From contig JAKSMO010000021.1 of the NCBI GenBank assembly GCA_024400545.1, positions 1-37,693 of the forward strand: a stretch of 37,693 nt of DNA. The letters run 5' to 3'. The position numbers and the translations under genes are program-made. The DNA comes from Bacteroidales bacterium. Its GTDB lineage: Bacteria > Bacteroidota > Bacteroidia > Bacteroidales > P3. The notes below the pieces were generated by a model, which was not told the origin of the DNA, did no database searches, and worked only from the letters and a program-made list of their open reading frames with translations. The first letter of the stretch is position 1. Each line of letters starts with the position of its first letter. Shown here piece by piece: positions 3,049 to 37,693 of this stretch.

Positions 3049-3681
3049 CACAATAAATAATGTCGATCTGCGTTTCACCTATGTTATGAAACAGCGGCGC
3101 AGTCTTGGTTATTTTGTTATTGCTTTGGCGTTTACTTGCACTCCGGCATTTACCGCCGTTGCGCAGAACCCTCATGCCGCATATCCTACTTATGTGGGGA
3201 AGGTCAGTCCCCATCATCCTTCTCATATCCGCAAGGCCAGAAGTATCACATCGCTGCAGCCAAGTGGTTTCGACATATTGGCCGACATGGGCAGCATCAC
3301 CCCTGTATTGATGGATGGCAATCTGGAGAGAAGTATTTTCACCACCTCCCTGGCCGCAGCATACAAAATCACTTTTTTGCAACATTTCAGCCTGTCGGTG
3401 GGGGTAGGTGCTCGACTCATCATCAGCAGCCTTTTAGTCACACCGCAAGTCTGCCTGGCCTACCAACCGCATTCGGTTAATTTCCAGCTTGCATGGGAAC
3501 ACGCTGCCATAGAGGGCGACTACAGCCTGGTGTATTTTGGCTTCTCTAAAGGATTGGGTCTTCGTGTCGGCCTCCTTCAGTGGAACAATCATTCCCTCTC
3601 CGCCTTCTACACCCTCACGGCCACCATACCTATCCGGCCAGCACACTAGAATGCGAGGTATTTTTGCCATAGATTGAGAAA
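3049..3681 (+). repeat. Copy A of a duplicated gene unit
   Basis: The segment resembles 16736-17366 beyond the coding sequence. Upstream, both copies share CACAATAAATAATG followed by a near-identical ATCTGCGTTTCA...ATGTTATGAAACAGCGGC. Downstream of the stop both share TTTTTGCCAT(A/G)GATTGAGAAA. The two units are in the same orientation and bracket about 13 kb. The shared flanks show that one DNA event copied gene plus flanks. Confidence 0.75.
3086..3649 (+). CDS. Exported protein of unknown family, copy A
   Basis: I place the start at the ATG of MKQRRSLGYF. A longer frame opens at 2951, but the alignment to the paralogue at 16774 and the signal peptide (hydrophobic FVIALAFTCTPAFTAVAQ) both begin here. 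The mature protein has about 160 residues. It starts with a striking His/Pro/Tyr-rich stretch (HAAYPTYVGKVSPHH, then HIRKAR), followed by LADMGSIT and beta-rich segments with Gly/aromatic patterning (FSLSVGVGARLI, YSLVYFGFSKGLGLR) ending in TIPIRP. This could be a small outer-membrane barrel or a periplasmic protein. I do not recognise the family. By hand alignment about 134 of 187 positions are identical to copy B. Nothing nearby fixes a function. Confidence 0.65.
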   Translation: MKQRRSLGYFVIALAFTCTPAFTAVAQNPHAAYPTYVGKVSPHHPSHIRKARSITSLQPSGFDILADMGSITPVLMDGNLERSIFTTSLAAAYKITFLQHFSLSVGVGARLIISSLLVTPQVCLAYQPHSVNFQLAWEHAAIEGDYSLVYFGFSKGLGLRVGLLQWNNHSLSAFYTLTATIPIRPAH

Positions 3682-16066: not shown

Positions 16067-16080
16067 GTATATGGGTTTAT

Positions 16081-16148
16081 GGGCTTAGTTGTTGCCCCTA
16101 AACGATTAAGCCCCTAAGCTCTTAAACTTGCCCCCCCAAGTTGGCAAC
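16081..16148 (+). terminator. Hairpin group after the T9SS cargo gene
   Basis: GGGCTTA (16081-16087) pairs with TAAGCCC (16107-16113). Next, AACTTG (16125-16130) pairs with CAAGTT (16137-16142) around a C-run, and GTTGCC (16091-16096) can pair with GGCAAC (16143-16148). The structures start 15 bases past the stop but lack a T-run. They may stop transcription or protect the 3' end. Confidence 0.4.
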
Positions 16149-16176
16149 ATACCTACATGATATTTTAAAAGAAAAC

Positions 16177-16307
16177 GATTTGATGTGTAAGGGCTAAAGC
16201 CTGGAGCCTTGGCGGAGTGCTGGCCTTATGAGAGCAAGGCTCTCAACGCCCACCACTCCACCAATTCTCCACCCCCTTTTTCAAAGGGTGCTCTTACACA
16301 TCAAATC
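16177..16307. repeat. 131-base nested inverted-repeat element
   Basis: A perfect 15-bp stem, GATTTGATGTGTAAG (16177-16191) with CTTACACATCAAATC (16293-16307), closes three inner hairpins. These are GGC-TAAA-GCC at 16192-16201; an 11-bp stem with one G-T mismatch (16209-16219 with 16254-16264) enclosing a 6-bp hairpin GAGAGC-AAG-GCTCTC (16230-16244); and CAC..CCTTT-TTC-AAAGGGTG near 16270-16290 with a two-base bulge. The layout resembles a multi-branched RNA or a palindromic mobile element. No coding frame is convincing here. Confidence 0.7.
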
Positions 16308-16312
16308 CGAAA

Positions 16313-16369
16313 ACATTCCGACAGTCGAGCGTCCAAGAGTTCACTCTTGAGACCGAGCGAAAGGAATGT
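16313..16369. repeat. Inverted repeat with inner tetraloop hairpin
   Basis: ACATTCC (16313-16319) pairs with GGAATGT (16363-16369). Inside, CAAGAG-TTCA-CTCTTG (16334-16349) forms a perfect hairpin that GTC/GAC can extend by three pairs after a one-base bulge. It directly follows the 131-base element. Confidence 0.55.
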
Positions 16370-16390
16370 CAACGACCAGCGGAAGTTAAC

Positions 16391-16511
16391 CTCCCTTCGG
16401 TCGCAAAAATATCGCTCACTATCGTGAGCAAAAACAAGAATGACTTCTTTCACACATTTGGTGCAAGGCATTGATCGTCAAATTGTATTTCATTTTTGCG
16501 ACCGAAGGGAG
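16391..16511. repeat. Perfect 20-bp inverted repeat around an 81-base spacer
   Basis: CTCCCTTCGGTCGCAAAAAT (16391-16410) is exactly the reverse complement of 16492-16511. The spacer contains a 6-bp hairpin, GCTCAC-TATC-GTGAGC (16414-16429). The size and perfect ends would suit a small non-autonomous (MITE-like) element or a structured RNA. I see no target-site duplication that settles the matter, and no open frame of note. Confidence 0.7.
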
Positions 16512-16532
16512 CGACATTTTCGGAAATTTTCG

Positions 16533-16678
16533 CTGTTGGCAGGCAAGCCACCAAAGGCTTGCCGCTGGTGGTGAGGTTGGCGGGAGGGAGAGCATCCCGC
16601 AAGGGTGCTTTCACGCACGGCAAGCGCAACGCCAGCTTACGCCCTGCCGCAAAGCAGGGCTGCCAACAGTTTTTTTTT
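16533..16678 (+). ncRNA. Structured element ending in a terminator-like T9 run
   Basis: An outer 10-bp stem, CTGTTGGCAG (16533-16542) with CTGCCAACAG (16660-16669), is followed at once by nine T (16670-16678). Inside lie GGCAAGCC-ACCAAA-GGCTTGCC (16542-16563), a bulged AGCATCCC/GGGTGCT hairpin near 16592-16611, and GCCCTGC-CGCAAA-GCAGGGC (16641-16660). The last hairpin plus the T-run forms a plausible intrinsic terminator. The whole could be a rightward non-coding RNA or a structured leader or terminator before copy B. Calling it an RNA gene is inference from structure alone. Confidence 0.4.
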
Positions 16679-16735
16679 AAATATCATGCGAGTATGCTGC
16701 CAACTTCTGCCACAAAAGGCGCACTATAGGATAAT

Positions 16736-17366
16736 CACAATAAATAATGCCAATCTGCGTTTCATCATATGTTATGAAACAGCGGCACAATATCGGGTAT
16801 TTTATCATCACACTGGCGGTAATCTGCGCCACGGCGATGACCGCCAATGCGCAGCGACCACATGCCGCTTATCCAACTTATGTGGGGAGGATTAGTCCTC
16901 ACCATACTGCCCATATCCGCAAGGCCAGAAAAACCACAGCGATGGAGCTGAGTGGATTTAAAGTGCTGGCCGACATGGGCAGTATAACCCGGTCATTGAC
17001 AGATGGGAGACTCGGAAGAAGAGCTTTTACATTCTCATTGGCAGCAGCATACCAAATCACTTATTTGCAGCACTTCAGCCTGTCGGTTGGGGTGGGGACA
17101 CGCCTCATCAACGACGACCTTTTCGTCACACCCCAAGCCAGCCTGGCTTACCAGCCGTACTCGGTTAACTTCCGCATTGCCTGGGAACGTGCCATAGAAG
17201 GCGACTACAGCCTGGTGTATTTTGGGGTTTCGAAGGGACTGGGTTTTCGTGCCGGCCTCTTGCAGTGGGCCGAACATCCTCTTTCCGCATTCTACACCCT
17301 CACGGCCACCATTCCTATCCGACCGTCGCACTAAGAGTTTGTACTTTTTTGCCATGGATTGAGAAA
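16736..17366 (+). repeat. Copy B of the duplicated gene unit
   Basis: This is the partner of 3049-3681. It shares CACAATAAATAATG and the leader up to ATGTTATGAAACAGCGGC, the coding sequence, and the downstream TTTTTGCCATGGATTGAGAAA. Unlike copy A, the downstream flank is not followed by a TAnnTTTG element. Confidence 0.75.
16774..17334 (+). CDS. Exported protein of unknown family, copy B
   Basis: The start is placed at MKQRHNIGYF (16774), matching copy A; an in-frame ATG at 16747 would add nine residues before the signal peptide. The protein has 186 residues, with the signal core IITLAVICATAMTANAQ. The conserved blocks shared with copy A are HAAYPTYVG, SPHH, HIRKAR, LADMGSIT, SLAAAY, LQHFSLSVGVG, IEGDYSLVYFG, SKGLG and LSAFYTLTATIPIRP, separated by variable positions. 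Conservation is strongest in the C-terminal half, so that part is probably under the strongest constraint. The N-terminal His/Tyr/Arg motif could bind a metal or act as a processing or docking segment; this is speculation. No function is assigned. Confidence 0.65.
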   Translation: MKQRHNIGYFIITLAVICATAMTANAQRPHAAYPTYVGRISPHHTAHIRKARKTTAMELSGFKVLADMGSITRSLTDGRLGRRAFTFSLAAAYQITYLQHFSLSVGVGTRLINDDLFVTPQASLAYQPYSVNFRIAWERAIEGDYSLVYFGVSKGLGFRAGLLQWAEHPLSAFYTLTATIPIRPSH

Positions 17367-37640: not shown

Positions 37641-37693
37641 TGACTAAGCTGGGATTCGAACCCAGGACCCCATCCTTAAAAGGGATGTGCTCT
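37641..37693 (-). tRNA. tRNA-Lys (anticodon TTT), 3' part, cut by the window end
   Basis: Read on the minus strand, the anticodon stem CATCC/GGATG encloses the loop CTTTTAA, giving anticodon TTT (37678-37680 on the plus strand). The T-arm is CTGGG-TTCGAAT-CCCAG. The 3' acceptor strand is CTTAGTC with discriminator A at 37641. CCA is not encoded. The 5' acceptor strand and most of the D-arm lie beyond 37693. It is a plain Lys tRNA with its own terminator. Confidence 0.93.

What the first reader, a model, noticed from the sequence alone, without database searches (positions are those of the whole stretch)
16067..16680. A 600-base non-coding stretch built from nested inverted repeats
Between a T9SS cargo gene and copy B of a duplicated gene lie at least six separate inverted repeats in a row, with almost no unpaired sequence between them. 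Chance would not give a perfect 20-bp repeat, a perfect 15-bp repeat and a perfect 10-bp repeat with T9 within 500 bases. They may be a cluster of palindromic mobile elements or one or more structured RNAs. No coding frame fits.
Basis: partly seen in the sequence, partly recalled or inferred. Interest (0 to 1): 0.75.

Follow-up and report, generated by a model that had tools for sequence, protein, structure and literature searches.

The report
Multi-hairpin mobile DNA element, gene-less
The 600-base stretch is one of about five copies of a gene-free DNA element that folds into a stem with several arms, and the tip of one arm is shared with small elements found next to transfer-RNA genes in many related bacteria.

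Summary
RNA fold z = -16.7, DNA z = -14.0. It occurs at about five places in its own genome. The other near-complete copies have three arms (H1, H3, H4); the window copy has a fourth, H2.

The tip of H1 defines a family. Its pattern hit 11 genome contigs, all Bacteroidales/Bacteroidia. In four surveys, 58 of 79 opened non-own loci lie 18-42 nt from the 3' end of a tRNA or tmRNA gene, a feature not selected for. A second copy of the tRNA 3' end often follows, as after site-specific insertion. In the window's own genus, 0 of 11 loci are tRNA-linked, though several keep the fold; the window copy belongs with these.

Best reading: a non-autonomous, MITE-like mobile DNA element of a 'trident' family that I found described nowhere in ten open-text searches. 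The enzyme is unknown, and mobility of the window copy is inferred, not shown. A structured RNA is the main rival.

The parts
16138..16174 (+). left arm of outer stem P1 (terminal inverted repeat)
   Evidence: I1, 37 nt, 84% complementary to 16670-16706; present in copies C74 and C85, replaced by other sequence in C17
16177..16307 (+). arm H1 (motif arm)
   Evidence: I4; folds as one long arm on either strand
16205..16269 (+). conserved tip of H1: CTTATGAGAGC..GCTCTCAACGC hairpin with a UUA/AC internal loop; match of covariance models R1 and R2
   Evidence: 49.4 bits, E 2.8e-9 in 69 kb with R2, which holds no window sequence, though its members were gathered by likeness to this tip
16312..16387 (+). 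extra module holding hairpin H2 (16313-16369); absent from copies C17, C74 and C85; its 3' end is shared by fragment C31
   Evidence: alignments; a 75%-identical partial relative of 16316-16412 in congener G003
16391..16511 (+). arm H3 (perfect 20-bp base)
   Evidence: I3; in the copies, only in part in C31, and split between contigs C74 and C18
16533..16669 (+). arm H4; internal deletion between GGCAAGC direct repeats in copy C85
   Evidence: I10
16670..16706 (+). right arm of outer stem P1
   Evidence: I1; present in C17, C18 and C85

Best explanation
A non-autonomous, gene-free mobile DNA element. Single-stranded or extruded, it folds into a junction of one outer stem plus three arms (four in the window copy). 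A trans-acting recombinase or transposase, not identified here, is inferred to recognise the fold, in particular the conserved tip of the motif arm, and to insert the element at new sites. In most relatives opened, the sites are the 3' ends of tRNA and tmRNA genes, where insertion leaves a second copy of the tRNA 3' end (T-loop to acceptor) beyond the element. In the window's genus a branch sits at other intergenic sites, and the window element is an enlarged, about five-copy member of that branch. Shown: multicopy, the fold, a shared tip motif with covariation among species, tRNA linkage and second tRNA 3' ends in relatives. Inferred: DNA-level recognition, the enzyme, present-day mobility, and mobility of the window copy itself.
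For: Copies at C20 (window), C17, C74+C18 (two contig ends sharing 46 nt, probably one copy), C85 and a fragment at C31; of 60 other genomes only two gave short partial matches. C17 and C85 keep arms H1, H3, H4 in the fold. Tip pattern: 11 of 11 records hit among the genome contigs are Bacteroidales/Bacteroidia; by my own estimate, random sequence would give about 3 hits in any phylum. Motif arm: 19 of 28 pairs change on both sides, score 0.430 vs 0.133 shuffled, in 13 sequences found by sequence pattern or as own copies; 25 of 28 and 0.464 vs 0.162 in 23 tRNA-linked sequences. R2, holding no window sequence, finds window H1 and the four own motif arms genome-wide. tRNA/tmRNA 3' end 18-42 nt from the motif arm in 58 of 79 opened non-own loci (10 of 11; 15 of 19; 18 of 24; 15 of 25). 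Second copy of the tRNA 3' end at +110 to +230: score 10 or more in 11 of 41 vs 2 of 672 control windows, 14 or more in 9 of 41 vs 0 of 672. Outer stem with exactly three arms in 36 of 59 loci vs 218 of 1180 flank-shuffled controls.
Against: No consistent target-site duplication and no empty site for the window copy. No element with this outer repeat plus a transposase seen in the own genome. No tRNA by ARAGORN in the window or the stretches around the own copies. Own copies show no compensatory change: 0, against 8 one-sided and 11 broken cells. The ends may not be P1: C74 and C17 share about 28 nt to the left, and C17 and the window about 25 nt to the right, beyond it. R2's members were gathered by likeness to the window tip (directly, or with R1, which holds four own sequences), so its score is not an independent homology test. 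The arm order varies in the genus relatives (motif arm first, middle or last). Compensatory tip changes at orthologous tRNA-Ser sites are not expected of a purely parasitic insert.
Confidence: 0.57

Rival explanations
1. A large structured non-coding RNA (or RNA processing/termination element): the fold is selected at RNA level, and tRNA-linked relatives are co-transcribed trailers.
For: Covariation around a conserved tip; compensatory tip changes, by eye, at tRNA-Ser sites of G722 and G619 that share downstream genes; paired positions differ less than unpaired ones between the window copy and C17 (10/269 vs 22/199) and C85 (5/237 vs 20/177). In one search a sub-threshold Rfam match (SpF41 sRNA, 35.6 bits, gathering 52) covers the tRNA 3' half and first hairpin of L104.
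Against: No Rfam gathering match to the element. In tRNA-linked relatives a GC hairpin plus T-run, terminator-like by eye, precedes the motif arm. G-U not in clear excess over A-C on either strand. Sporadic presence and a decayed copy at the tRNA-Asp site in G619. The paired/unpaired contrast is biased, since the pairs were taken from the window's fold; C17 vs C85 gives only 10/218 vs 13/173.
Confidence: 0.21
2. A composite of unrelated palindromic MITEs inserted into one another, the junction shape being incidental.
For: Module H2 is whole in one copy only; C31 carries only part of H2 and H3; the arms differ greatly in sequence.
Against: Small relatives with quite different sequences often have an outer stem plus three arms; H1, H3 and H4 occur together in C17, C85 and, if one copy, C74+C18.
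Confidence: 0.13
3. A chromosomal protein-binding or domain-organising site kept for the host and spread by recombination.
For: Conserved tip, intergenic positions, sometimes retained at matching sites in two species.
Against: Sporadic: 42 of 395 class genomes at E 1e-4; second copies of tRNA 3' ends imply insertion events.
Confidence: 0.06

Closest known systems
MITEs, e.g. BrickBuilt of Porphyromonas gingivalis (PMC4596501: abstract and section list seen)
   Same: gene-free, multicopy, intergenic, inverted-repeat ends, Bacteroidales
   Different: BrickBuilt is a 23-nt minisatellite between leader and tail; here several unlike long arms stand on one outer stem, with a tip motif found across the phylum, and no parental IS was found in the own genome
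Elements inserting at tRNA 3' ends through tyrosine recombinases (ICEs, P4-type; PMC8138268: two passages seen)
   Same: relatives of the window element sit at tRNA 3' ends and are often followed by a second copy of that end
   Different: the insert is about 150-190 bp, too short for an integrase gene; the window copy is not at a tRNA
REP palindromes (PMC3733652: start of abstract and four passages seen)
   Same: palindromic DNA repeats
   Different: REPs are given there as 20-40 bp; the window element is about 570 bp; GTAG/CGTC tags were not scanned for
Integron attC sites, casposons, rRNA intervening sequences (recalled only)
   Same: folded ssDNA substrate; tRNA 3' end target; stem-closed inserts
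   Different: no attC boxes recognised by eye, Cas1 not searched for, not in rRNA

Membership tests
MITE | terminal inverted repeats | tested here: met
   37-nt arms, 84% complementary; paired in the fold of C85
MITE | multicopy, no coding capacity | tested here: met
   about five places; of ORFs of at least 90 aa only 16605-16895 overlaps the element, at its right end; that ORF was not searched against families
MITE | target-site duplication | tested here: inconclusive
   no consistent duplication by eye at the copies; few copies, some with lost or uncertain ends
MITE | autonomous parent with the same ends | tested here: not met
   P1 found only in these copies in the own draft genome; its core pattern in no genome or viral contig; a diverged parent elsewhere is not excluded
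tRNA-linked trident family (defined here) | motif-arm tip | tested here: met
   49.4 bits with R2; members were gathered by this tip, so the test is not independent
tRNA-linked trident family (defined here) | outer stem plus three arms | tested here: met
   by eye on MFE folds: C85 in full; C17 has the arms but lost the left outer arm; the window copy has a fourth arm; C74+C18 not folded together
tRNA-linked trident family (defined here) | position at a tRNA/tmRNA 3' end with a second tRNA 3' end | tested here: not met
   no tRNA by ARAGORN in the window or in L021-L025; 0 of 11 scanned genus loci within 50 nt
Rfam structured RNA | gathering-score match | tested here: not met
REP | 20-40 bp palindrome | tested here: not met
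   about 570 bp; tags and RAYT transposase not searched
Tyrosine-recombinase integrative element | own integrase gene | not tested
   the window element has no room for one; for 12 relatives only the starts of flanking ORFs were listed, without a family search

The most novel reading that the evidence does not exclude
A new class of mobile DNA across Bacteroidota: gene-free elements whose identity is a folded junction with a conserved arm tip, recognised as structure by an unknown recombinase, most of them inserting at the T-loop/3' end of almost any tRNA or tmRNA gene and carrying their own terminator-like hairpin, with branches such as the window's that enlarged their arms and spread to intergenic sites.
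Probability: 0.35. Interest if true: 0.9.

Novelty: new variant of a known kind. Interest (0 to 1): 0.7.

Why it matters
If the reading holds, Bacteroidota carry a widespread, overlooked family of tiny elements that use tRNA gene ends as landing sites without encoding an integrase. A defined fold and motif make the enzyme findable and testable, and would explain many unannotated hairpins beside tRNA genes. The window copy would show that such elements can grow and amplify away from tRNAs.

Tried and rejected
Outer-stem pattern in genome and viral contigs: no hit. A looser tip pattern in the genus gave mostly matches without a palindromic stem; the one palindromic newcomer, G023, was without any wider hairpin fold. 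One viral-contig match (L155) matched R2 only at positions 22-42, lies in what reads as coding sequence and was dropped. Plasmid and phage blastn of the element: no match. PDDEXK_3 (GxxExxY) genes as mobiliser: within about 110 bp of the arm at 4 of 10 genus places in the eight congeners searched for the gene, but with no match in seven genomes that have tRNA-linked elements (G722, G639, G596, G619, G876, G641, G313), so not adopted. An empty site for the window copy: no congener of 119 was seen to match both flanks side by side, but only two candidates per genome were scored. An empty site at tRNA-Asp in G619: a decayed element was there instead. Ten paper searches (two were for named things) listed no paper that I recognised as describing this family; only open-licence full text is searched, and only listings plus parts of four papers were seen.

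What the counts leave out. The 79 loci are those opened in the four surveys, best matches first; own-genome loci, and the weaker class hits for which no locus was opened, are not in it. The fifth survey, in the genus (12 non-own places, 11 scanned), is given apart: 0 of 11. By the better-scoring strand 57 of the 58 have one orientation; L235 scores 47.4 against 46.1 for the expected strand. One search took 43 loci of the first three surveys (L125 left out, L134 put in), two of them too short, leaving 41; its register count (32 of 41) has no control. One search's criterion was set after folds had been seen, and its 59 loci leave out the own copies and some edge or duplicate loci. Fifteen of the 23 sequences were found with a structure-scoring model, which leans its pair counts towards that structure. 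After this check the leading reading was lowered from 0.60 to 0.57, because R2 proved not to be an independent test.

Full report
What is there. The stretch is one element, 16138-16706, closed by 37-nt arms (84% complementary), with inner arms H1 16177-16307, H2 16313-16369, H3 16391-16511 and H4 16533-16669. RNA folding gives -269.9 kcal/mol, z -16.7, 0 of 100 shuffles as good; the other strand z -12.9; as DNA z -14.0. The pair 16067-16127 lies outside. No Rfam family reaches gathering score here.

Copies. The own genome (2.64 Mb draft, 105 contigs, contamination 8.27) has it at C20 (window), C17, C74/C18, C85 and as a fragment at C31. C74 and C18 are contig ends sharing 46 nt, so probably one copy. 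C17 lost the left outer arm, C85 has a deletion within H4, and only the window copy has the full 76-nt H2 module, of which C31 keeps the 3' end. The usual form is thus H1, H3 and H4 on an outer stem. Of 60 other genomes searched with the whole element, G003 and G032 gave short partial matches and the rest none. Plasmid and phage records gave none. C74 and C17 share about 28 nt of left flank, and C17 and the window about 25 nt of right flank, beyond the outer repeat, so the true ends are not certain.

The motif. The G032 match fell on the tip of H1. A pattern for that tip hit 11 records among the genome contigs, all Bacteroidales or Bacteroidia by their titles, and none among viral contigs. Outside the tip fixed by the pattern, the arm covaries: 19 of 28 pairs change on both sides, score 0.430 vs 0.133 shuffled. 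With 23 tRNA-linked sequences it is 25 of 28 and 0.464 vs 0.162, but 15 of these had been found with R1, a structure-scoring model. R2, built from those 23 and holding no window sequence, finds the window hairpin at 49.4 bits, E 2.8e-9 in 69 kb, and the four own motif arms in the whole genome, E 3.8e-8 to 3.5e-6. This is no independent homology test, since its members were gathered by likeness to the window tip. The independent points are the restriction of the pattern hits to one lineage and the tRNA linkage, for which nothing was selected.

tRNA linkage of relatives. Distances, worked out by hand from the tables, between motif arm and tRNA/tmRNA 3' end: 25-42 nt in 10 of 11 named contigs; 24-39 nt in 15 of 19 order loci; 18-38 nt in 18 of 24 phylum loci; 18-38 nt in 15 of 25 new class loci, with 3 more at 153-155 nt. 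Together 58 of 79, in one orientation except L235, which scores almost equally on both strands. Of the rest, some are contig edges or tandem copies, and some carry only a tRNA 3' fragment by eye; others, such as L106, L107 and L230, show none. Genes include tRNA-Ser, Leu, Pro, Arg, Met, Lys, Gln, Asp, Glu, Phe, Ala, His, Gly, Cys and tmRNA. Prevalence, own genome included: 16 of 393 order genomes at E 0.01 (R1), 9 of 395 phylum genomes at E 0.001 (R2), 42 of 395 class genomes at E 1e-4 (R2).

Signs of insertion. A second copy of the tRNA 3' end lies beyond the element: score 8 or more in 22 of 41 loci against 23 of 672 control windows, 10 or more in 11 against 2, 14 or more in 9 against 0. In 32 of 41 the best match starts between tRNA positions -20 and -14 at +140 to +200, many of these short and without a control. 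Tandem partial copies, often beginning near the arm tip, follow some elements (by eye). Anatomy of the tRNA-linked form, by eye: outer arm, GC hairpin with T-run, motif arm, third hairpin, outer arm, then often a GGGATC..AATCCC-type hairpin. An outer stem with exactly three arms is the MFE fold in 36 of 59 loci versus 218 of 1180 flank-shuffled controls; 23 of 59 do not meet the criterion.

The window's branch. In its genus 11 of 120 genomes, own included, have hits. None of the 11 loci scanned has a tRNA within 50 nt. L159, L161 and L162 have the motif arm first, as the own copies do; in others it is in the middle or last. At 4 of 10 genus places in the eight congeners searched, the arm lies within about 110 bp of a PDDEXK_3 nuclease gene. 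This is a lead only: seven genomes with tRNA-linked elements have no match, and the own genome's two genes are on other contigs than the copies.

RNA or DNA. For RNA: covariation, and compensatory tip changes at tRNA-Ser sites of G722 and G619 that share downstream genes. For DNA: the insertion signs, a terminator-like hairpin before the motif arm, no clear G-U strand bias, and decay at tRNA-Asp in G619. Own copies show no compensatory change (0, with 8 one-sided and 11 broken cells); their paired positions differ less than unpaired ones, but the pairs were chosen on the window's fold. I favour a mobile DNA element at 0.57 and RNA at 0.21.

Against known kinds. It works like a MITE and, in its relatives, like an element that targets tRNA ends. 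It fails the parent-IS test in its own draft genome, and the window copy fails the tRNA-site test, so it is filed as a non-tRNA relative of the family and not as a full member. Ten paper searches listed no description that I recognised; BrickBuilt (PMC4596501, abstract and section list seen) is the nearest Bacteroidales MITE met.

Noticed in passing
window 3049-3681 and 16736-17366: Duplicated gene of unknown family, 77% identical between copies; the likeness starts about 30 bp beyond the element. No Pfam match for copy B; a homologue in G020.
   Followed up: partly
window 37641-37693: Partial tRNA at the window's edge.
   Followed up: no
G000 many contigs, e.g. C95:14215-14329, C37:7188-7375: Low-complexity GCTTAG/TTGTTTAG word runs at dozens of places.
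   Followed up: no
L161, L163, L159, L165: PDDEXK_3 (GxxExxY) nuclease genes beside three-arm elements, in L161 with motif arms on both sides.
   Followed up: partly
L132, L133, L118, L149: Tandem partial copies of the element's 3' part, often starting near the motif tip, downstream of the full element (by eye).
   Followed up: partly
L141 (G596:C41, 4977 bp): Contig bounded at both ends by inverted copies of the tRNA-linked element, probably an assembly break at repeats.
   Followed up: partly
L027 1280-2300: Further palindromic runs (GTCATTGCGGGC..GCCCGCAATGAC type) near the H2/H3 relative in G003.
   Followed up: no
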